Shown here in pieces: positions 8,641 to 50,460 of a stretch of 64,000 nt of DNA; positions within the stretch are counted from its first letter, which is position 1; each line of letters begins with the position of its first letter. A program made the translations under genes and the position numbers. The DNA is from Cupriavidus pauculus. Lineage in GTDB: Bacteria > Pseudomonadota > Gammaproteobacteria > Burkholderiales > Burkholderiaceae. The notes beneath the pieces are model-generated. The model was not told the DNA's origin. It did no database searches and saw nothing but the letters and a program-made list of their open reading frames with translations. The DNA lies in the NCBI RefSeq assembly GCF_002858765.1, contig NZ_PJRP01000012.1:62001-126000 (forward strand). Direction: 5' to 3'.

Positions 8641-10251
8641 ATGAAATCGAGACTTCTTTTGACGGGTCTGGCCGCTGTCGTACTGACGGCGTGCGGCGGT
8701 GGCGGCGGAGATAGCGCGGCGCCGAGCGCAACGCCCCAGGCGACTTCAAATATCAGCGGTACTGTGGCGGTAGGCGCCGCGCTGCCGGCGATCAACGTGA
8801 CGGCAAAGTGCGCGCGGGGCTCCGGCACTGCCACCACGGCAGCCGACGGTACCTTCAAGGTGAGCATCGCCGATGCCGTCCGGCCGTGCGTGCTGTCGGT
8901 CGCGGCGCCGGACGGTTCGACGCTGCATTCGGTGGTACCAGCCGGCAGTGCATCCGATATCGTGGCCAATATCACGCCGCTGACCGAGCTGATCACGGCC
9001 GCCCTGGCCCAGGGCAGCACCGCCCAGTTCGCCACGCTCGACGCCGCCTCCCAGGCGCGCCTGACCGAGGCCAACCTGGCGACGGCGCTGGCCCTCGTCA
9101 AGCAACTGCTCAGCGGCAGCATCGACCTGGGCAACCTCAACCCGATCAAGGATCCGCTCGTCGCCGCAACCAGCGGCCAGGCCGGCAACGCCCTTGACCA
9201 GCTTCTGGACAAGCTGGCTGCCCGCCTGGCAGCCGCCCGCACTTCGGTGGGCGACCTGTCCGCCGCCGTGGGCGCGAACGGCAACGTGGCAGGCAAGCTG
9301 CAGCCGGGCGCCGAAACCTGCAACGTCATGAAGACGGCAGGCGAGTTCTTCGTGGCCGGCCAGGGTGGCTTCAGCCGCGTGCGCTATGACACGGCCACGG
9401 CCCAGCTGAGCACGCTGGACAGCCTGGGCAATGTCACGGCCAAGTCGCCGTTCATGCCCTACCAGGGCGAGGCTTGCCGCTACATCGCCACGGGCAATGG
9501 TGTCGTCAACGACGTGATGGTGTCGCGTTCGGGCCTGGCACTGATGCGCAACCTGTCCACGTGGCAACTGCCGGCGCTGATGGTGCCGGCGCAGCAGCTG
9601 TCGATGTCGGAGCTGGCAGGCAAGTGGAACGCGGTGGGCTTCGAGCGCGCCGCGCCCGGCCAGGCGTTCTACCCGACCCGCGGCACGTTCACGATCAACG
9701 CGTCCGGACAGTTCACCGCCGGTGCCGACTGCGCGGGCGTAAGCACGACGTGCTCTCCCTGGGCGCAGGCTGACCTGCCGGTGCTGACCCAGAACGCGCA
9801 TGGCGACTACACGCTGACGGACCCGAGCGGCACCGCCCCCGTGGCCGCCTTCAAGGACACCGATGGCACCGTGGTTGCCGTGGTGTCTTCGGCGAACGGC
9901 CTGATCATCGCCACCAAGCAGGTGGTGCGTCCGATGCCGACGGTGGGTTCGACCAATGCGTACTGGGATGTGGTGACGTACCAGAACCTGAGCGCCGTGA
10001 TGGCCGAGGAATCGACGGTGATCCAGAGCGTGGATACGTTGGCGGGTAGCTACACGCGCAAGCGTGTCAGCGATGGGCGGGTTGACACCTGGACGCAAAA
10101 TTCGCCGAGCATCGGCCTGCGTTATCGCGCGGGCGACAATCTGTCCCGCAAAGGCATCTCGCTGACGCTCGGTACGACCGGCGTAGGCGCGATGATCAGC
10201 CTCGACAACAGTCTGCTGTTCTACGATATCTCGGTGAGCCGCCCGCAGTAA
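8641..10251 (+). CDS. Predicted outer-surface lipoprotein, unknown function
   Basis: The 536-residue protein begins with a lipoprotein signal ending LTAC (C18), followed by a Gly run (CGGGGGDS). Residues 38-130 form a module with two cysteines (KC at 57, PCVL at 83) and the sequence ITPLTEL; the same module opens the collagen-like lipoprotein at 57510. After that comes an alanine-rich helical stretch and a C-terminal half with extended, beta-type sequence (FTINASGQFTAGADC). No catalytic motif is recognisable. It is monocistronic, followed by a strong terminator. Family name not known to me; surface or periplasmic location is inferred from the lipobox. Confidence 0.85.
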   Translation: MKSRLLLTGLAAVVLTACGGGGGDSAAPSATPQATSNISGTVAVGAALPAINVTAKCARGSGTATTAADGTFKVSIADAVRPCVLSVAAPDGSTLHSVVPAGSASDIVANITPLTELITAALAQGSTAQFATLDAASQARLTEANLATALALVKQLLSGSIDLGNLNPIKDPLVAATSGQAGNALDQLLDKLAARLAAARTSVGDLSAAVGANGNVAGKLQPGAETCNVMKTAGEFFVAGQGGFSRVRYDTATAQLSTLDSLGNVTAKSPFMPYQGEACRYIATGNGVVNDVMVSRSGLALMRNLSTWQLPALMVPAQQLSMSELAGKWNAVGFERAAPGQAFYPTRGTFTINASGQFTAGADCAGVSTTCSPWAQADLPVLTQNAHGDYTLTDPSGTAPVAAFKDTDGTVVAVVSSANGLIIATKQVVRPMPTVGSTNAYWDVVTYQNLSAVMAEESTVIQSVDTLAGSYTRKRVSDGRVDTWTQNSPSIGLRYRAGDNLSRKGISLTLGTTGVGAMISLDNSLLFYDISVSRPQ

Positions 10252-42453: not shown

Positions 42454-43068
42454 ATGGAAGACATCGAATCTTGTACCGCCTTTGCAGGCGAACGGCGGCT
42501 GGCGTCCGGCACGCCGGTGGCGGTGGCATTGGCCGTGGCGGCCGCGCTGCGCGCCGATCCGCATCAATCGATCCTGGCGTTTGGCGATGTCACGGGCCGG
42601 CAGGTGGATTTCGACCTGCGCGGCAGCGACGCCGATATCGCCGCGCGGCTGGCGCCGCCGGCTGCCGAGGAGGGCCCGGCCAGGAAGGGCGCCGGGCGGC
42701 CGAAGCTGGGCGTCGTGGCGCGTGAAGTCACGCTGCTGCCGCGCCATTGGGAATGGCTGGGCGAGCAATCGGGCGGGGCATCGGTGACGTTGCGCAAGCT
42801 GGTGGATGCGGCGCGCAAGGGGCAGGGCGTGGAGGGGGCGGAAGGCGCGAAATTGGCCGCCAACCGTGCCAAGGCGGCGGCGGACCGCTTCATGTCGACG
42901 ATGCTCGGCAACCAGCCCGGCTACGAGGAAGCGTCGCGCGCGCTATATGGCGGCGACCGGGACCGCTTCCTGGCGCTGTCCCAGACGTGGCCCGCCGACC
43001 TGCGCGACCACGCCCGCAAGCTGGCCGCGCCGGCCTTCGACGCCGATCAGCCGAACGTGAACGCGTAG
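42454..43068 (+). CDS. DUF2239 family protein with a ribbon-helix-helix-like segment
   Basis: The 204-residue protein is of unknown function. The N-terminal half (TAFAGERRLASGTPVAVALA ... GRQVDFDLRG) is conserved in DUF2239. Residues 81-121 read GRPKLGVVAREVTLLPRHWE then WLGEQSGGASVTLRKLVDAA, which fits strand - helix - helix of a ribbon-helix-helix DNA-binding fold (strand 88-95, helix A 97-105, helix B 109-121; inference). The ATG at 42454 follows GGGAG. Two palindromes and a promoter lie just upstream, suggesting autoregulation. It converges with dipZ, overlapping by 22 bases at the 3' ends. Confidence 0.85.
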   Translation: MEDIESCTAFAGERRLASGTPVAVALAVAAALRADPHQSILAFGDVTGRQVDFDLRGSDADIAARLAPPAAEEGPARKGAGRPKLGVVAREVTLLPRHWEWLGEQSGGASVTLRKLVDAARKGQGVEGAEGAKLAANRAKAAADRFMSTMLGNQPGYEEASRALYGGDRDRFLALSQTWPADLRDHARKLAAPAFDADQPNVNA

Positions 43069-44870
43069 GCCTGGGCGCCCGGGTCGAGGAAGCGGATCTC
43101 GAACGTGTGTTCACCGACTTCGCCCGCCTGGCGCACCAGCTGGTAAAGCCGCGTGGCGATGATCGCCCCGTTGCCGTTGGCGTCGATGTCGGCGCCATGG
43201 CTGTCGCCCGGCGCCTTGCCGTCGATGGTCACCACGAAGCGCACGGCGCGGCCATTGGCGGCCGGCCCCAGCACCAGGTGCAGGTCGCGGGCCTGGAAGC
43301 GGTAGCGGATGCTGCCGTCGGCGCGCTCCACGGTGGCGAATTCCGGCCCCACCGTCCATTGGCCTGCCAGTCCCCACTGATTCAGGCGCAGGTTGCCGTC
43401 CACGGCGTAGTTGCGCGGTGCGTCCGGACGGATGCCGCCCGGCGAGGCAAAGTTCGACGCCTGGTTGTAGCCCACATAGGTTTCGCCAGAGCGGACGTTG
43501 CGCAGGTCGGGGGCGGCCTGTGCGCCCTTGGCATCGGGCACCACCACATCGCGCGACGCCGACGGCTGGCCGGCTTCGGCCAGCAGCGTCTGGATCACAC
43601 GCTCGGATTGGGCGTAGTCACCCTCGCCAAACTGGTGGTGGCGGATATTGCCGCGCGCATCGACAAAGTAGGCCGCCGGCCAGTAATTGTTGTTGAAGGC
43701 GCGCCAGATGTTGTAGTCGCTGTCCACGGCCACCGGGAAGCCGATCTTGAAGTCGCCAATCGCGCGGCGCACGTTGTCCGGCTTCTTCTCGAACGCGAAC
43801 TCGGGCGTGTGCACGCCGATGACCTGCAGGCCGGGGTACTTGTCGGCCCAGGCGCGCAGGTAGGGCAGCGTGCGGATGCAGTTGATGCAGGAATACGTCC
43901 AGAAATAGACCAGCGTGACCTTGCCCTGCAACTGCTGGCGCGTGATCGGCGCGCCGTTCGGCGTGTTGAACCACTGGACGGCGCCATCGAGCGATGGCAA
44001 CTGGCCTTCCACCGGCAGGCGGTTGCCGACGCCATAGCCCTCATAGCCCGTGCCGTTGGCAGCCAGCAGCATGCCGGCGGCCGGCGCGCCGTCGTTGACT
44101 GCGGCAGCCGTGGTCGAACCCTCGCTGCCGGCCTGCGGCACGCGTGCCGATGCGTTGTGCAGCCGGTCGATCAGTGCCTGTTCCAGCCGGGCCGGGCCGC
44201 TGACGGACAGCCGCGCCAGGAAACCGGTATCGGCGCCAATGGCGATGGCGGCCACGCCGCCCAGCACGCCCACGCCCAGGCCGCGACGCAACCATTCGCC
44301 GGCCCCCATCGAACGCTTCATGGCCAGGAACAGGCGGCCGCCCAGGCCCAGCGCAGCGGCCAGCGACGTGGCCGCACCGGCTGCGTACGCCACCAGCAGC
44401 AGCGAGCTTTGCACGCTGGCGCCCTGCAGCGCGGCCGTGGTCAGCACGATGCCCAGGATCGGGCCGGCGCAGGGTGCCCAAAGCATGCCCGTGGCCACCC
44501 CGAGCAGCAGCGACGCCCACGGCGACGCCGTGCCGGCCGTGCCATCGCCAGCCAGCCGGTTGCCCAGCGCCACCACGGGCCGGGTCAGCGCGTCGGCCAG
44601 CCGGGGCACCAGCAGCGACACGCCGAACACCGCCAGCAGGGCCAAGGCGGCGTAGCGGCCGTATTCGTTGGCGCGTACCGCCCAGGCGCCGCCCACCGAC
44701 GCCAGCGTGGCCACCGCCGCGAAGGTCAGCGCCATGCCGGCCAGCATCGGCAGCCGCCCGCGCAGGAACGGCTGGCCGCTGCCGCTCAGCACGAACGGCA
44801 GCACGGGCAGGATGCACGGGCTCAGGATGGTCAGGGCACCGCCCAGGTAGGCAAGGATCAGCAGCGTCAT
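43047..44870 (-). CDS. dipZ: DipZ-type protein: CcdA-like membrane domain fused to a thioredoxin-like domain and a C-terminal beta domain
   Basis: The 607-residue protein brings reducing power from the cytoplasm to the periplasm. It has an N-terminal CcdA-type membrane domain with the two reactive cysteines in TILSPCILPVLPF (C19) and MLWAPCAGPIL (C134), then a TlpA-like domain with WTYSCINC (C328, C331), and a C-terminal beta-sandwich-like tail (GLAGQWTVGPEF, LHLVLGPAANGRAVRF). ATG 44870 follows AAAGGA. The thioredoxin domain is closely similar to the separate protein at 48761. Divergent from the two-component system at 45100. Confidence 0.92.
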   Translation of the reverse strand: MTLLILAYLGGALTILSPCILPVLPFVLSGSGQPFLRGRLPMLAGMALTFAAVATLASVGGAWAVRANEYGRYAALALLAVFGVSLLVPRLADALTRPVVALGNRLAGDGTAGTASPWASLLLGVATGMLWAPCAGPILGIVLTTAALQGASVQSSLLLVAYAAGAATSLAAALGLGGRLFLAMKRSMGAGEWLRRGLGVGVLGGVAAIAIGADTGFLARLSVSGPARLEQALIDRLHNASARVPQAGSEGSTTAAAVNDGAPAAGMLLAANGTGYEGYGVGNRLPVEGQLPSLDGAVQWFNTPNGAPITRQQLQGKVTLVYFWTYSCINCIRTLPYLRAWADKYPGLQVIGVHTPEFAFEKKPDNVRRAIGDFKIGFPVAVDSDYNIWRAFNNNYWPAAYFVDARGNIRHHQFGEGDYAQSERVIQTLLAEAGQPSASRDVVVPDAKGAQAAPDLRNVRSGETYVGYNQASNFASPGGIRPDAPRNYAVDGNLRLNQWGLAGQWTVGPEFATVERADGSIRYRFQARDLHLVLGPAANGRAVRFVVTIDGKAPGDSHGADIDANGNGAIIATRLYQLVRQAGEVGEHTFEIRFLDPGAQAYAFTFG

Positions 44871-45099
44871 GGTCGGGTTCCTTTCGGAAGGGATTTGGGG
44901 CCAGCCATCTGGCATGCCCCAATGAGACGCCCGTGATCTACCGTAAATGTGTCGCCAATCGGCAAAGTTGTATGGCTTTGTGGGGCGGCTGCCGCCAGAT
45001 ACATTGCGATACACGCGAAGGCGCGCGCGCCCATACAATCTCGCCAACAGACTGATTGTTCACATTTTTCCTAGAAATAGATTGCCAGGGGTGAAGCTG

Positions 45100-45839
<740 letters not shown>

Positions 45840-45843
<4 letters not shown>

Positions 45844-47144
45844 GCACTCGCCGCTGGCGCTGGCCCCATACCATGGGGTCGCGCCTGTTCCTGATCCTGC
45901 TGGCGGGCATGATCGTCGCGCACCTGATGTCGTTTGCCGTGCTGTTTTCGGAGCGATACGTGTCGGCGCGACAGGTCATGCTGGGCACGCTGGAGACCGA
46001 CGTGGCGACGTCGGTGGCGATCCTGGACCGGATTCCCGCCGCCGAGCGCCCGCAGTGGCTGCCGCGCGTGAACCGTGGCAACTACCAGTACATCCTGGGG
46101 CCGGGGTCGCCGGGGGTGCCGGAAATGACCGAGCGCGGGCGCGACATCGCCGAGCGGATCATGGAAGCCACCGGCACGCACTATCCGGTCACGGTCCAGT
46201 CGATTCCTGGCGACGGCAAGCAGCTTCAGGCGCATCTGACGCTGACCGACGGCAGCCCGCTGACCATCGACGTGCACCCGCGCATGACGCCTATCGCCGA
46301 GTGGCTGCCTTATGTGCTGGTGCTGCAGTTGCTGCTGCTGATCCTGTGCTGCTGGTTCGCCGTGCGCCTGTCGATCCGCCCGCTGGTGGCGCTGGCCGAT
46401 GCCGCCGATGCCCTCAATCCGAATACCCGGTCGCAGCCGCTGGACGAGCAGGGCCCGACGGAACTGGCGCAGGCGGCGCGAGCCTTCAACGCCATGCGCG
46501 ACCGCATTGCGCAATTTGTCGAAGAGCGCGTGCAGATCCTGTCCGCCATCTCGCATGACTTGCAGACACCCATCACGCGGATGAAGCTGCGCGCAGAAAT
46601 GGCCGAGGATTCGGAGGAAAAGCGCAAGCTGGTCAACGACCTGGCGGAAATCCAGACGCTGGTGCGGGAAGGGTTGGCCTACGCGCGCAGCAGTGGCGGC
46701 GATGGCGAGGAGGCGTCCCGCATCGACCTGGGATCGTTTGTCGAAAGCCTGGTTTATGACTACCAGGACACCGGCAAGGATGTATCGATCAGCGAGAACG
46801 CCGGCGGCGCCATCGTCATCCGCCGCAACGCACTGCGGCGCGTGCTGACCAACCTGATCGACAACGCCATCAAGTATGGCGGCGGGGCGGCCGAAATGGC
46901 CGTCCACCGCGAACGCGACGCCGTGGTCATATCGATCATGGACCGGGGGCCGGGCATCCCCGAAGACAAGCTCGAGGCCGTCTTGCAGCCGTTTGTGCGC
47001 CTGGAGGGCTCGCGCAACCGCGAGACCGGCGGCACGGGCCTGGGTCTGGCCATCGCGCACCAGCTTGCGACGGCCATCGGCGGCTCGCTGACGCTGCGCA
47101 ATCGGGAAGGTGGCGGCCTGGCTGCGGATATCCGGCTGGGCTGA
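45840..47144 (+). CDS. Sensor histidine kinase
   Basis: The 434-residue membrane kinase starts at GTG 45840, overlapping the regulator stop (GTGA). TM1 is about residues 15-36, a periplasmic sensing loop of about 120 residues follows, TM2 about 156-176, then a HAMP domain, a HisKA box with the phospho-acceptor H239 in AISHDLQTPITRMK, and an ATPase domain with DNAIKYGG, DRGPGIPEDKL and GGTGLGLAI. The medium-sized periplasmic loop resembles EnvZ-type sensors. The signal is unknown; redox or envelope stress fits the neighbours. Confidence 0.94.
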
Positions 47145-47220: not shown

Positions 47221-47284
47221 CCGGCGGTTCCAATCGCGAACCGTTGGCAAACAGGGCCTCCACGCCCTTTCTCCCATCCCCCAA

Positions 47285-47310
47285 CCCCTCTCCCACGCCC
47301 GGGAGAGGGG
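47285..47310. repeat. CTCTCCC palindromic repeat, copy 2
   Basis: CCCCTCTCCC and GGGAGAGGGG, perfect 10-bp arms around a 6-base loop; same core as the copies at 47181 and 30772. Confidence 0.6.
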
Positions 47311-47573
47311 GAGTGCATCAGGATGCACATCCATCCTTCTATCCCCCTCCGTCGTCCCCGCCTCCCTGCAGGCGCCTTCCCTTTTTGTACGCCTTTGTAT
47401 CAGGCCGCCGCGACGATACGTGCCCTGACAGAACGGCCGCCAAGTCGCTACGGGCGCGATACGTGGGCCGCCTTAAATACGGTCCATGGCAGCGCGACGC
47501 ACAAACGACAAAGCGAAAACGCTGCCACGGCAATCCACCGAATCGACCGCATACCACTGAAAAGGAAACCATC

Positions 47574-48185
47574 ATGTCCAAGAACCTCACCAAGCGCCTT
47601 GTCCTCGCCGTTGCCCTGGTTGCCGCCGCCGCTGGCGCACAGGCTTCCGTTGTCGGTGCCCGCGACGTGTACACCGACGGCGCCCGTGCCGTGCAGGGTG
47701 CCCGCGACGTGTTCAGCGAAGGTGCCCGTTCGGCCACCGACGCCCGCGACCCGTACACCGAAGGTGCCCGCTCGGTGCAGGAGCCGCGCAGCCCGTATTA
47801 CGACGGCGCCCACACCGTGGCCAGCCTGTCGGTGCGCTCGGCCGATCCGTTCCTCGACGGCGCCCGCTCGGTGCAAGACCAGCGCAGCCCGTACTACGAC
47901 GGCGCCCGCTCGGTGCAGGAACCGCGCAGCCCCTACTACGACGGCGCGCACACGGTAGCCGGCCTGGATCGCACCGGCGTGTCGGCCTCGCCGGCCCGCT
48001 CGGCCGACCCGTACCTGGACGGCGCCCGCTCGGTGCAGGACCAGCGCAGCCCGTTCTATGACGGCGCCCGCACGCTGGACCCGTACTACGAAGGTGCCCG
48101 CTCGGTAGCCGGCCTGGACCGCACCGGCGTGTCGGCCGACCCGGCACGCAGCGTCGATCCGTACCTGGACGGCGCCTACGCCTGA
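47574..48185 (+). CDS. Secreted tandem-repeat protein (DGA repeat type), unknown family
   Basis: The 203-residue protein has a Sec signal (MSKNLTKRLVLAVALVAAAA ending AQA) and a mature part made only of short repeats. About 11 copies of a core [DS]-[PV]-[YF]-x-[DE]-G-A-[RH] occur (RDVYTDGAR, RDPYTEGAR, RSPYYDGAH, ADPYLDGAR), in units of about 14 residues. Two copies of a second module G-L-D-R-T-G-V-S-A-x-P-A-R-S are interspersed. No cysteine, no known domain. The protein is rich in Asp, Arg, Tyr and Gly. ATG 47574 follows AAGGAAACC. The same two modules form the protein at 49990. It lies 77 bases before ohr, likely in one transcript. Confidence 0.85.
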   Translation: MSKNLTKRLVLAVALVAAAAGAQASVVGARDVYTDGARAVQGARDVFSEGARSATDARDPYTEGARSVQEPRSPYYDGAHTVASLSVRSADPFLDGARSVQDQRSPYYDGARSVQEPRSPYYDGAHTVAGLDRTGVSASPARSADPYLDGARSVQDQRSPFYDGARTLDPYYEGARSVAGLDRTGVSADPARSVDPYLDGAYA

Positions 48186-48262
48186 GGCCCGGCCCACATG
48201 TTGAAGCACCACCGAATCCGCATCACCACAACCAGACCACTGAACGAGACAAGGAAACCATC

Positions 48263-48682
48263 ATGACCCGCATCGAAAAAGTCCTGTACACCGGCAAGGT
48301 TCACATCACGTCTGGCGGCCGCGACGGCGCGGCACGCAGCGACGACGGCCAGCTCGACATCGACCTGTCGTCGCCGGGCAGCAAGGGCAACGGCACCAAC
48401 CCCGAGCAACTGCTGGCCGCCGGCTGGTCTGCCTGCTTCATCGGCGCCATCGGGCTGGCCGCCGGCAAGCAGAAGATCAAGCTGCCGGAAGACCTGTCGG
48501 TAGACGCAGAGGTGGACCTGGGCACGGCCGGTGTGGAGTACCTGCTGCAGGCTCGGCTACGCGTGCATATCCCCGGCATCGAGCGCGAGGTGGCGCAGGC
48601 GCTGGTGGACACCGCGCACCGCACCTGCCCGTACTCGAAGGCACTGCACGGCAACATCCATATCGAAACCGAACTGGTCTGA
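48263..48682 (+). CDS. ohr: Ohr/OsmC-family organic hydroperoxide reductase
   Basis: The 139-residue peroxidase detoxifies organic hydroperoxides with lipoylated protein as reductant. Catalytic residues of the family are present: R20 (GGRDG), E48 (NPEQLLAAGW), C58 (WSACFIGAI) and C122 (RTCPYSKA). The N-terminal LYTGKVHITSGGRDG matches Ohr rather than YhfA. It is preceded by the leader AAGGAAACCATC, nearly identical to that of the upstream repeat-protein gene. No OhrR regulator gene is adjacent in the window. Confidence 0.94.
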   Translation: MTRIEKVLYTGKVHITSGGRDGAARSDDGQLDIDLSSPGSKGNGTNPEQLLAAGWSACFIGAIGLAAGKQKIKLPEDLSVDAEVDLGTAGVEYLLQARLRVHIPGIEREVAQALVDTAHRTCPYSKALHGNIHIETELV

Positions 48683-48760
48683 CCAGTGTCCCATCGCCCC
48701 GTCAGCCACCGAGTCACCACTCGGGCGCGGGGCGAGCACCTCCAGAGAGGCCCCTGAATC

Positions 48761-49315
48761 ATGCGTAACGTCATCCGCGCCATGCTTGCCGCCATCGGCA
48801 TTGCGGCCATCTATACCTTCGGCACCGGCGCCATCGCCGAAAGTCCAAAGGTGGGCGACCAGGGCGCCGCGCCCGAATTCGTGGGGATCAACAATTGGCT
48901 GAATTCCGAGCCGCTAACGCTGCAGCAACTGCGCGGCAAGGTGGTGCTGGTCGACTTCTGGACGTACGCTTGCGGCAACTGCGTGAACACGCTGCCGCAT
49001 GTGAAACAGTGGTACGAGAAGTACAAGGACCAGGGCCTGGTGGTGGTGGGCGTGCACACGCCGGAGTTTCCGTTCGAGAAATCGACGGAGAACGTGCAGG
49101 CGGCGCTCAAGCGCTATGACATCCGCTACCCGGTGGCGCAGGACAACATGTACGGCACGTGGTCCGCGTACCGCAACCAGTATTGGCCCGCGCTCTACCT
49201 GATCGACGCCAACGGCCGCATCGTGTACCAGCACTACGGCGAAGGCCGCTACAAGGAAACCGAGGCAGCCCTCCAGAAACTGCTGGCGGAACGCAAGGCG
49301 GCACAGCCGGGATGA
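48761..49315 (+). CDS. Periplasmic TlpA-like thioredoxin (DipZ C-terminal type)
   Basis: The 184-residue protein has a signal anchor (VIRAMLAAIGIAAIYTF) and a thioredoxin domain with WTYACGNC (C71, C74). It shares long stretches with the thioredoxin domain of DipZ in this window: both read LQ-GKV-LV-FWTY-C-NC--TLP, later VIGVHTPEF/VVGVHTPEF and EGxY near the end. It is probably reduced by the CcdA domain of DipZ (inference). Third gene after the repeat protein and ohr, ended by a strong terminator. Confidence 0.92.
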   Translation: MRNVIRAMLAAIGIAAIYTFGTGAIAESPKVGDQGAAPEFVGINNWLNSEPLTLQQLRGKVVLVDFWTYACGNCVNTLPHVKQWYEKYKDQGLVVVGVHTPEFPFEKSTENVQAALKRYDIRYPVAQDNMYGTWSAYRNQYWPALYLIDANGRIVYQHYGEGRYKETEAALQKLLAERKAAQPG

Positions 49316-49345
49316 GTGAAGTCCGAGATGGCTTTGGAAATGGGG

Positions 49346-49374
49346 AAGGGCCTTGTTCGCAAGGCCCTTTTTTT
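49346..49374 (+). terminator. Rho-independent terminator
   Basis: AAGGGCCTTG, TTCG tetraloop, CAAGGCCCTT then T-run, 30 bases after the thioredoxin stop; ends the 47574-49315 transcript. Confidence 0.95.
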
Positions 49375-49388
49375 ATTGGCTGGCCGTC

Positions 49389-49724
49389 CTACCGCCCATC
49401 CAGCAACACCATCGTCAGCAACACCGACGCATCGGTCACGGCCTTCACGTCATGCCGGACGTTGCCGGCCAGGTAGATCAGGTCGCCGGGTTTCAGGCGC
49501 TGCGAGCCGTGGTCCAGGGCGACTTCGACTTCGCCTTCGATGCACTGGATGGTCAGCGGGCCGGCCACGGCGTGCGGGGGCAACTGTTTGCCCGCCAGCA
49601 TCACCAGGCGGGCCACTTCCATGTGGGGGGCCTTGAACAGCGCGGTGGTGGGGGTGTTCTTGAGGTTGGCGCCAAGCGGTAGCACGCTGGCGGTCTGGCC
49701 GGAAGACAGGTGGGGAATCGACAT
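49389..49724 (-). CDS. Cupin-domain protein
   Basis: The 111-residue single-cupin protein shows motif 1 around LPPHAVAGPLTIQCIEGEVEV and motif 2 LKPGDLIYLAGNVRHDVKA. The metal ligands are reduced compared with enzymes (one His in motif 1, one in motif 2), so it may be a sensor or binding protein. Cytoplasmic. Convergent with the thioredoxin gene across the terminator. Confidence 0.85.
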   Translation of the reverse strand: MSIPHLSSGQTASVLPLGANLKNTPTTALFKAPHMEVARLVMLAGKQLPPHAVAGPLTIQCIEGEVEVALDHGSQRLKPGDLIYLAGNVRHDVKAVTDASVLLTMVLLDGR

Positions 49725-49989
49725 GGCTTCGCTCGCTGACTGGGGATTGGCTGGTTCTACAGCCGCGCCTTCCTGCGCGCGGTAGGTTTCAGTCTATGGC
49801 CAAATCGCGTGCAAGGCACAGCGCGCCGCCAGCGGAGTGTGGCGCAGGTAGCGTAAGTCGACCCGGGGTGGCATGGCGATGGGCATCGGCAGGTGGCGTG
49901 TTGAACGACGTCCTGGGCTGACGGGCCGCGTCGCGCCGGGTGAGGACCCAGTCGGACGCGACCCGCCGGTGATGCCCCGATACCGCTGC

Positions 49990-50460
49990 TTAGGCCAGCG
50001 CGCCGTCCGTGTAGACGTCGATCGTGCGCGAGGGCTCGGCCGATACGCCGCTGCGGTCCATGCCGGCCAGCGCGCCGTCCGTGTAGACGTCGATCGTGCG
50101 CGAGGGCTCGGCCGATACGCCGCTGCGGTCCATGCCGGCCAGTGCGCCGTCGGTGTAGACGTCGATCATGCGCGAGGGCTCGGCAGATACGCCACGGAGG
50201 TCCATCCCGGACAGGGACCGGTCGTTGTCGATTTCGCGCGTGGTCGGGGCCACGACACGTGCGCCTTCGCTGAACGTGTCAAATCGGCCGGTGCGCGCGC
50301 CATCGGTGAAGACATCGCGCGCGTCCATGCGGAAGCTGTAGCCGTACCTGTCGCCAGCGTGCGTGCTGTCGCGCGGGCCCGAGGCATGGGCGCCGCCTGC
50401 CGCCAGGCCGAGGGCCAGCGCAGTGGTGGAGAGAAGGGAAAGGGTGAATCTGCGTGACAT
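49990..50460 (-). CDS. Secreted tandem-repeat protein (DGA repeat type), second copy
   Basis: The 156-residue protein has a Sec signal (MSRRFTLSLLSTTALALGLA ending AHA). The mature part contains RDVFTDGAR and FDTFSEGAR, then three copies of a 24-residue unit (GMDRSGVSAEPSR followed by TIDVYTDGALA; the first copy slightly diverged). These are the same two modules as in the 47574 protein. It ends exactly after the third unit. ATG 50460 follows GGAG; longer in-frame readings to 50652 have no signal. No known domain. Its three repeats are nearly identical in DNA, implying recent duplication. Confidence 0.83.
   Translation of the reverse strand: MSRRFTLSLLSTTALALGLAAGGAHASGPRDSTHAGDRYGYSFRMDARDVFTDGARTGRFDTFSEGARVVAPTTREIDNDRSLSGMDLRGVSAEPSRMIDVYTDGALAGMDRSGVSAEPSRTIDVYTDGALAGMDRSGVSAEPSRTIDVYTDGALA
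49993..50208 (-). repeat. Three tandem 72-bp repeats inside the 49990 gene
   Basis: Units at 49993-50064, 50065-50136 and 50137-50208. The first two are almost identical at base level; the third has a few changes. In-frame (24 codons), so the copy number could vary without breaking the gene. Confidence 0.9.

What the first reader, a model, noticed from the sequence alone, without database searches (positions are those of the whole stretch)
47574..50460. A new family of exported two-module repeat proteins
Two genes (47574-48185 plus, 49990-50460 minus) encode signal-peptide proteins whose mature parts consist only of two short modules: A = [RI][DS][VP][YF]x[DE]GA and B = G[LM]D[RL]xGVSAxPxR. 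The order and number differ (about 11 A and 2 B in one, 5 A and 3 B in the other), there are no cysteines, and I recognise no family. The pattern of regularly spaced Asp/Glu, Tyr and Arg suggests metal, nucleic acid or polysaccharide binding, or a self-assembling material. They flank ohr, a thioredoxin and a cupin.
Basis: partly seen in the sequence, partly recalled or inferred. Interest (0 to 1): 0.82.

Follow-up and report, generated by a model that had tools for sequence, protein, structure and literature searches.

The report
CopQ-family stress proteins in peroxide regulon
The two repeat proteins belong to an already described but functionally unexplained family of small exported stress proteins (CopQ-like) found in the soil bacteria Cupriavidus and Ralstonia, and one of them appears to be switched on together with peroxide- and thiol-repair enzymes by a neighbouring two-component sensor system.

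Summary
In detail: both genes encode exported, cysteine-free proteins of repeated A (DxYxDGA) and B (GLDxxGVSAxPxR) modules, with 11 A/2 B and 5 A/3 B. "New family" does not hold. These are CopQ-like proteins, described for C. metallidurans in 2010 (RDXXTDG repeats, signal peptide, metal-induced, Cupriavidus/Ralstonia only; function unknown), though Pfam and NCBIfam lack a model. This genome has 28 candidates, scattered. New, as far as eight paper searches show, is the regulation of one subclass. A tandem 10-bp repeat (core TGTA-N6-TGTATC) lies 161-204 bp before the start codon in 25 of 31 CopQ genes in loci mostly chosen for carrying it, in Cupriavidus and Ralstonia. It also sits between dipZ and an OmpR/EnvZ-type two-component operon, and before ohr-resA and exported hydrolase genes. 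AlphaFold finds no fold beyond the signal helix. The chain is charge-mixed and poor in Cys, Met, Trp and His, which speaks against soft-metal chelation. Most likely: a disordered, oxidation- and metal-inert protective polymer of the envelope, induced with peroxide/thiol repair. Identity is near certain, the regulon strong, the molecular mechanism unproven.

The parts
47574..48185 (+). copQ1: CopQ-like exported repeat protein P0001 (203 aa; 11 A, 2 B modules; ends DPYLDGAYA)
   Evidence: AlphaFold: only the signal helix is structured, mean pLDDT 53
49990..50460 (-). copQ2: second CopQ-like protein P0002 (156 aa; YGYSFR N-terminal element, 5 A, 3 B; ends DVYTDGALA)
   Evidence: mean pLDDT 52; no TGTAN6TGTATC box within 300 bp upstream at up to 1 mismatch; genes of the same type next to the cupin gene in L180 and L050 and in L173 (copQ2 at 9367-9765, cupin at 8850-9182)
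47384..47401 (+). Putative response-regulator box, direct repeat TTTGTACGCCTTTGTATC; the core TGTAN6TGTATC starts 188 bp before the copQ1 start codon
47447..47463 (+). Second conserved repeat GCTACGGGCGCGATACG (11-bp phase) upstream of the -10-like element
   Evidence: conserved in an alignment of 15 CopQ upstream regions from the two genera
47473..47478 (+). -10-like element TTAAAT, largely conserved; transcription start not mapped
   Evidence: inference
44998..45013 (-). Second copy of the box (TGTATCGCAATGTATC) in the dipZ/response-regulator divergent intergenic region
45100..45843 (+). OmpR-subfamily response regulator, proposed to bind the box (inferred)
45840..47144 (+). EnvZ-like sensor histidine kinase with HAMP, HisKA and HATPase domains (start 45840 or 45873)
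43047..44870 (-). DipZ-like protein: DsbD-type membrane part (weak Pfam match), thioredoxin-like domain and Thioredoxin_10 C-terminal domain; name by domain content, recalled
   Evidence: start codon; beside the TCS in relatives
48263..48682 (+). ohr, organic hydroperoxide resistance protein, 78 bp after copQ1
48761..49315 (+). ResA-like exported thiol-disulfide oxidoreductase, 79 bp after ohr
49389..49724 (-). small cupin-domain protein between the two copQ genes

Best explanation
Both proteins are members of the CopQ-like family of Cupriavidus and Ralstonia (shown). copQ1 belongs to a subclass controlled by a tandem 10-bp repeat box, most likely bound by the OmpR/EnvZ-type two-component system encoded next to it (box, position and synteny shown; binding inferred). 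That system co-controls DipZ-like and ResA-like thiol redox proteins, Ohr and exported alpha/beta or epoxide hydrolases, that is, an envelope response to peroxides or other oxidants or electrophiles (inferred from gene content). The CopQ chain is exported and predicted to have no fold. It is a well-mixed polyampholyte with one aromatic residue per module, a module number that varies from 4 to 11 among copQ1-type genes, and a conserved DGAxA C-terminus. It is poor in the residues that oxidants or soft metals attack. I propose that it acts as a stress-induced, redox- and metal-inert protective polymer in the envelope, holding damaged proteins or forming a weakly cross-linked hydrated layer, rather than as an enzyme or a metal chelator (inferred). 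The many copies, 28 candidates here, would supply such proteins under different regulators for different stresses.
For: Identity: homologues named CopQ; CH34 CopQ and CzcJ, placed by gene order on pMOL30, show the same RDxxTDGA modules; literature passages. Selection on protein: 22 DNA versions of 29 DPYTDGA. Regulon: 12 boxes versus 0 in the reversed control in this genome; 202 versus 41 over 30 genomes of the genus and 46 versus 10 over 16 g24 genomes, my sums. Besides four copQ genes the box lies between dipZ and the regulator gene and before an alpha/beta hydrolase, an epoxide hydrolase (two boxes) and an MFS gene. The order dipZ-box-TCS-box-CopQ-ohr-resA is found in L172, L173, L174, L175, L180, L050 and the window. 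In g24 (Ralstonia-type) genomes, whose sequences were not used to derive the pattern, 8 of 13 stretches fetched around boxes show box-CopQ-hydrolase and 4 show box-ohr-resA. Distance to ATG is 161-204 bp in all 25 box-bearing CopQ genes (boxes sought within 420 bp). Disorder: pLDDT 52-53, pTM 0.15-0.18; charge segregation one half to two thirds of that of shuffles in three proteins. Composition: C+M+W+H 1.9% in 27 own CopQ proteins versus 7.0% in 86 neighbour proteins; 137 of 159 proteins with at least three modules, from the two search listings plus three of this genome, end in [DEN]G[AST] plus 0-2 residues. Published: PrsQ1 and PrsQ2 (CopQ-like) are needed for silver resistance; three CopQ-like genes were reported as H2O2-induced by personal communication.
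Against: No expression, binding or biochemical data exist for these two genes. Low pLDDT also arises from shallow, repeat-confused alignments (35 and 49 sequences). The box pattern was derived from copQ upstream regions, so the 4 boxes at the 28 paralogues of this genome are not independent evidence, and the relatives were mostly picked because they carry the box. Among five g24 genomes searched for both, three have a box before a CopQ match and two (G024, G151) do not. In some genomes the box count does not exceed the control (G291 4 versus 6, G346 3 versus 3, G105 0 versus 2). L176, L184, L185 and L187 have the two-component genes and box without a box-CopQ beside them. Strict boxes also occur in 18 of 123 sampled genomes outside the two genera. 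copQ2 and 23 others of the 28 paralogues lack an exact box (L046 has one with a mismatch), so the peroxide link does not cover the family. Aromatic spacing is not more regular than in shuffles. The composition control was neighbouring proteins, not matched for export. Published induction is mainly by metals.
Confidence: 0.5

Rival explanations
1. Periplasmic metal buffer: Asp/Tyr-rich modules bind divalent or soft metal ions and lower free metal in the envelope.
For: Family named copper resistance; several members strongly metal-induced; PrsQ1/PrsQ2 needed for silver resistance; Asp is 13% of mature residues.
Against: Cys 0.3%, Met 0.6%, His 1.0% in 27 own paralogues, so almost no soft-metal ligands. 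Acidic residues are nearly balanced by Arg/Lys (NCPR -0.01 to -0.05 in the three proteins computed). copQ1 sits with peroxide/thiol genes, not efflux genes. No Pfam EF-hand or dockerin match at E <= 1.
Confidence: 0.15
2. Partner or regulator of exported proteins: CopQ binds the exported alpha/beta hydrolase, the ResA-like protein or the sensor kinase and tunes its activity or location.
For: Box-CopQ-hydrolase cluster in 8 g24 stretches; catalase-CopQ-hydrolase cluster in L045 with a 28-bp gap; an alpha/beta hydrolase of this genome and its closest orthologue carry a C-terminal CopQ module, RDLFSDGA or RDPFADGA, absent from the 7 other orthologues whose ends were read; short conserved C-terminus.
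Against: Neighbours differ among paralogues; 28 dispersed candidates; module number varies at the same kind of locus; hydrolase fusion seen in two species only, and the more distant hydrolases were not read.
Confidence: 0.2
3. Sacrificial scavenger: Tyr, Arg and Lys side chains soak up radicals, hypochlorous acid or reactive carbonyls.
For: About 9% Tyr+Phe and 14% Arg+Lys; regulon with Ohr and thiol repair.
Against: The usual sacrificial residues Met and Cys are depleted, and 17 of 27 own mature sequences have no Cys, Met or Trp, against 12 of 304 80-residue pieces of neighbour proteins; 4-11 modules in copQ1-type genes suggest no fixed stoichiometric demand.
Confidence: 0.12
4. Multicopy peptide precursor: Arg/Lys-bounded modules are released by proteolysis as signalling peptides.
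For: Near-identical short peptides between basic residues.
Against: Among the neighbours given to Pfam (a part only) the sole possible maturation enzyme is an FGE-sulfatase-domain protein 1.1 kb from the L021 paralogue, and that domain is recalled to act on cysteine, which CopQ lacks; module sequence varies within one protein.
Confidence: 0.04

Closest known systems
CopQ-like small stress-responsive proteins of Cupriavidus/Ralstonia (CopQ, CzcJ, MmrQ, MmmQ, MmtQ, MmsQ, PrsQ1, PrsQ2)
   Same: Signal peptide, repeated RDxxTDGA module, many paralogues, same two genera
   Different: P0001 (203 aa) is longer than the 69-165 aa reported; module B and the YGYxFR element are not mentioned in the passages read; copQ1 lies in an ohr/thioredoxin neighbourhood instead of a metal-resistance cluster
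OmpR/EnvZ-type two-component systems
   Same: OmpR-subfamily regulator, EnvZ-like kinase; box is a tandem 10-bp direct repeat, as recalled for OmpR sites
   Different: Below the NCBIfam equivalog cut-offs (254 of 331 bits; 193 of 415), different genes under the box
DUF1471 (BhsA/McbA) small periplasmic stress proteins of enterobacteria (recalled)
   Same: Lineage-specific expansion of small exported proteins, each answering a different stress (recalled)
   Different: No match in the Pfam scan of P0001 and P0002 at E <= 1; DUF1471 is folded (recalled), CopQ predicted disordered
Hydrophilins/LEA proteins (recalled)
   Same: Glycine-rich, charged, disordered, stress-induced
   Different: No LEA Pfam match for P0001 or P0002 at E <= 1; exported; aromatic residue in every module

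Membership tests
CopQ-like family | N-terminal Sec-type signal sequence | tested here: met
   Hydrophobic N-terminus with AxA end in both, by eye; in the models the N-terminal helix is the only long element, pLDDT 82 in P0001 and about 62 in P0002. SignalP was not run.
CopQ-like family | Repeated RDXXTDG-type motif joined by defined spacers | tested here: met
   11 and 5 modules; homologues named CopQ; CH34 CopQ and CzcJ, identified by gene order (the record calls both 'hypothetical protein'), carry the same motif
CopQ-like family | Restricted to Cupriavidus and Ralstonia | tested here: met
   75 of 398 genomes of the family, in 2 of 25 genera; 2 of 300 in the order and 2 of 299 in the phylum, both own genus. 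Of 79 named loci kept from 224 relatives, 75 are titled Cupriavidus or Ralstonia and 4 'Burkholderiaceae bacterium' 16 or 26
CopQ-like family | Small size, 69-165 aa | tested here: not met
   P0002 (156 aa) fits; P0001 (203 aa) does not. This is a descriptive range of one strain's 19 genes, not a defining limit; box-bearing CopQ genes in the mapped loci are 73-203 aa
CopQ-like family | Induction by metals or peroxide | not testable with these tools
   No expression data for this genome
OmpR-type regulon (proposed) | Tandem 10-bp direct-repeat site upstream of targets and of its own operon | tested here: met
OmpR-type regulon (proposed) | Regulator binds the site | not testable with these tools
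   needs EMSA or ChIP
EF-hand/dockerin calcium binders | DxDxDG loop with matching profile | tested here: not met
   No Pfam match to either at E <= 1 for P0001 or P0002; the third position is Tyr/Phe in the 126 counted modules, although the search pattern required Tyr, Phe or His there

The most novel reading that the evidence does not exclude
CopQ proteins are a lineage-specific class of bacterial envelope disordered proteins, Tyr/Arg sticker-and-spacer polyampholytes built from redox- and soft-metal-inert residues, that assemble in the periplasm under oxidant or metal stress. Tens of paralogues are wired to different regulators, and the C-terminal DGA module is a portable tag that can also be attached to exported hydrolases.
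Probability: 0.22. Interest if true: 0.75.

Novelty: new member of a known kind. Interest (0 to 1): 0.48.

Why it matters
The CopQ family has been listed as metal-induced and of unknown function since 2010, with 19-21 copies in one model strain, and two members are needed for silver resistance in one mutant. Placing one subclass in a conserved two-component regulon with Ohr, thiol oxidoreductases and exported hydrolases, across two genera, gives a defined sensor, a defined box and a small gene set in which the function can be tested. It also suggests that the label 'copper resistance protein' misleads for at least part of the family.

Tried and rejected
Rejected: 'new family'. Soft-metal chelation as the main role (composition). 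Regular aromatic spacing as a hallmark: no more regular than in shuffles. AgrR box upstream of the own paralogues: within 2 mismatches only for L031. A Poisson P of 1.4e-9 for four boxes upstream of 28 CopQ genes is not used, because the pattern was derived from those genes. Fold searches were not run, since both models are low-confidence. Named plasmid or chromid records gave no annotated neighbours. C19:66708 (L044) matched weakly and gave no candidate ORF, so it was dropped; L048 (aminotransferase-like) was dropped as a chance pattern hit; L029, L039 and L046 have only one strict module and are the weakest of the 28. One search leaves out L029 and includes the hydrolase tail (L049); the 27-protein composition set leaves out L029 and L049, and its 159-protein set leaves out P0116 and proteins with fewer than three modules. 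One search was given 16 loci and aligned 15 (L294 yielded none). Of the two protein searches, only 120 of 238 hits were listed for P0002, and for P0001 only the 7994 candidates sharing most words were scored. Pfam was run on 28 proteins in all (8 + 10 + 10), so most neighbours of the paralogues were not classified. Literature: papers were read only as the passages; the rest were seen as search listings. That the box and regulon are not in print rests on eight paper searches, none of which named the box itself, in an open-access library that misses most subscription journals; the 2019 silver-resistance paper cited by PMC7380067 was not read.
Full report
What is there. The two ORFs translate exactly as described. 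P0001 is 203 aa with 11 A and 2 B modules; P0002 is 156 aa with 5 A and 3 B (A by pattern; B by eye). Both start with a hydrophobic signal sequence ending in A-x-A and contain no cysteine. 'Only two modules' is slightly too simple: P0002 and its homologues begin with RDSxxAGDxYGYxFR, and linkers recur. Tandem DNA repeats of 72 bp (P0002) and 24, 42 and 150 bp (P0001) show recent expansion. The motif is nevertheless older than these DNA repeats: 29 DPYTDGA modules in the genome are written in 22 different DNA sequences.

Not a new family. Protein searches return 72 and 238 homologues (120 of the latter listed), many named 'copper resistance protein CopQ'. The CH34 genome paper describes CzcJ, MmrQ and CopQ as exported proteins with an RDXXTDG motif repeated 3 to 4 times, adds MmmQ, MmtQ and MmsQ with similar domains, reports metal induction and finds them only in Cupriavidus and Ralstonia (PMC2864759, passages). 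Later papers count 19 (PMC3384475, passages) or 21 (PMC7563307, passages) copies in that strain. PrsQ1 and PrsQ2, two CopQ-like proteins, are needed for silver resistance in mutant NA4S (PMC7380067, passages). The CH34 CopQ and CzcJ sequences, found on pMOL30 by gene order since the record calls both hypothetical, have the same modules. Neither Pfam nor NCBIfam has a model that matches.

Copy number and range. The codon pattern for DxYxDGA gives 105 hits against 5 for the reversed control. Inspection of 29 fetched stretches plus the window yields 28 candidate CopQ-like proteins, 25 of them with at least two strict modules, mostly standing alone. One further module sits at the C-terminus of an exported alpha/beta hydrolase (L049). 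Of 398 genomes of the family 75 have matches, in two of 25 genera: 59 of the own genus and 16 of g24. In the order 2 of 300, and in the phylum 2 of 299, have a match, both of the own genus. A named scan with a g24 member kept 79 loci of 224 relatives; 75 are titled Cupriavidus or Ralstonia and 4 unclassified Burkholderiaceae. Its best hit, on a 1,651,834-base contig of Ralstonia sp. UNC404CL21Col, overlaps the place of the G077 match on a contig of that same length, so g24 is very probably Ralstonia.

Regulation. The upstream DNA of copQ1 is conserved in three other paralogues and in two other species, around a direct repeat TTTGTACGCCTTTGTATC. The core TGTAN6TGTATC occurs 12 times in the genome, 0 in the reversed control. 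Nine of the 12 have a plausible target: four copQ genes, the dipZ/response-regulator intergenic region, an exported alpha/beta hydrolase, an epoxide hydrolase (two boxes) and an MFS gene; three (C1, C4:146251, C15) have no clear one. Over 30 genomes of the genus the sum is 202 hits against 41 in the control, with no excess in a few genomes such as G291 (my addition). Of 20 stretches of relatives, fetched mostly around such boxes, L172, L173, L174, L175 and L180 show dipZ-box-RR-HK-box-CopQ-ohr-resA, as do L050 and the window. L177-L179 have a second, diverged copy of the two-component system; L182 and L183 have dipZ-box-box-CopQ-resA; plasmid locus L053 has box-CopQ-box-resA; L188 has box-CopQ-ohr; L186 and L191 have box-CopQ; L181 has the system with a box before ohr; L176 has the box and resA without CopQ; L184, L185 and L187 have the system and box but no box-CopQ next to it; L190 has system-box-dipZ; L189 has a CopQ gene without box.

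Ralstonia as a separate test. In g24 genomes the box was found in 15 of 16, 46 hits against 10 in the control (my sums). Of five g24 genomes searched for both, three (G043, G067, G077) have a box just upstream of a CopQ match and two (G024, G151) do not. Of 13 stretches then fetched around boxes, 8 show box-CopQ-alpha/beta hydrolase (75-84% identical to the Cupriavidus C19 hydrolase that itself has the box), 4 show box-ohr-resA (three of them beside dipZ and the two-component genes), and one shows ohr-box-TCS-box-dipZ. In the mapped loci of both genera together 25 of 31 CopQ genes have the box, always 161-204 bp before the start codon chosen by the script. The six without are four copQ2-type genes, L184 and L189. 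The loci were mostly chosen for the box, so the fraction is biased; the constant distance is not. Alignment of 15 upstream regions shows the box, a second 11-bp-phased repeat GCTACGGGCGCGATACG and a -10-like TTAAAT. A stricter box pattern occurs in 14 of 14 own-genus, 10 of 13 g24 and 18 of 123 other genomes, with 2 control hits in all 150, so the box is not limited to CopQ carriers.

Anatomy of the protein. AlphaFold gives mean pLDDT 53 and 52, pTM 0.18 and 0.15, with no element but the N-terminal helix apart from one four-residue helix in P0002. The chain is a near-neutral, well-mixed polyampholyte (charge segregation one half to two thirds of shuffles in P0001, P0002 and P0166). Cys, Met, Trp and His make up 1.9% of 27 own paralogues versus 7.0% of 86 neighbouring proteins; 17 of 27, and 92 of 159 in the wider set, have no Cys, Met or Trp, against 12 of 304 80-residue pieces of the neighbours. 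Of the 159 proteins, 137 end in [DEN]G[AST] plus 0-2 residues. Box-bearing CopQ genes carry 4-11 modules in Cupriavidus and 4-5 in g24. Fixed ends and a variable middle fit a multivalent flexible polymer better than an enzyme or a stoichiometric binder (inference).

Function. The company of box-controlled CopQ (Ohr, ResA-like and DipZ-like thiol proteins, exported hydrolases) points to peroxide or electrophile damage in the envelope. Some other paralogues lie near catalase and an alpha/beta hydrolase (L045), an epoxide hydrolase and cytochrome P460 (L030), an ECF sigma factor (L032), a CusB/HlyD-type efflux gene (L037) and a cupredoxin (L022); most neighbours were not classified. Published induction by metals, and for three genes by H2O2 (personal communication cited in PMC3384475), fits metal-caused oxidative damage. 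I therefore prefer a protective, redox- and metal-inert disordered polymer. The molecular step is inference; a binding partner among exported hydrolases is the strongest rival, helped by the hydrolase with a CopQ tail in two species. A proteome study lists CzcJ and CopQ as not found under metal challenge (PMC11647595, passages), which may reflect small size, secretion or turnover.

Verdict. Already described family, new members, ordinary in identity; a new and testable regulatory setting; mechanism still open.

Noticed in passing
L049:4437-5336 (G000:C13) and L089: An exported alpha/beta hydrolase carries a CopQ-like module at its very C-terminus (RDLFSDGA; RDPFADGA in its closest orthologue, 95% identical); the 7 other orthologues read end before it.
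   Followed up: partly
L045:4468-7184: Catalase, CopQ-like gene and alpha/beta hydrolase in one direction, with 153- and 28-bp gaps.
   Followed up: partly
L177, L178, L179: A second, diverged two-component operon (kinase about 50% identical) with its own box lies between CopQ and the first one.
   Followed up: no
database homologues P0007, P0017, P0018, P0022, P0034, P0105: CopQ-like proteins are named 'hydroxyquinol 1,2-dioxygenase' in public records, apparently a propagated misannotation.
   Followed up: no
window 47260-47330: CCTCTCCCACGCCCGGGAGAGGG inverted repeat between the kinase gene and copQ1; a similar one in EM10, looking like a common intergenic repeat.
   Followed up: no
G130:C2:81716-81818: A divergent pair of strict boxes in a genome of another genus of the family that is not among the CopQ-positive genomes; may show the regulon before CopQ joined it.
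   Followed up: no
L021:3672-4559: An FGE-sulfatase-domain gene 1.1 kb from a box-bearing CopQ paralogue; relevance unknown.
   Followed up: no
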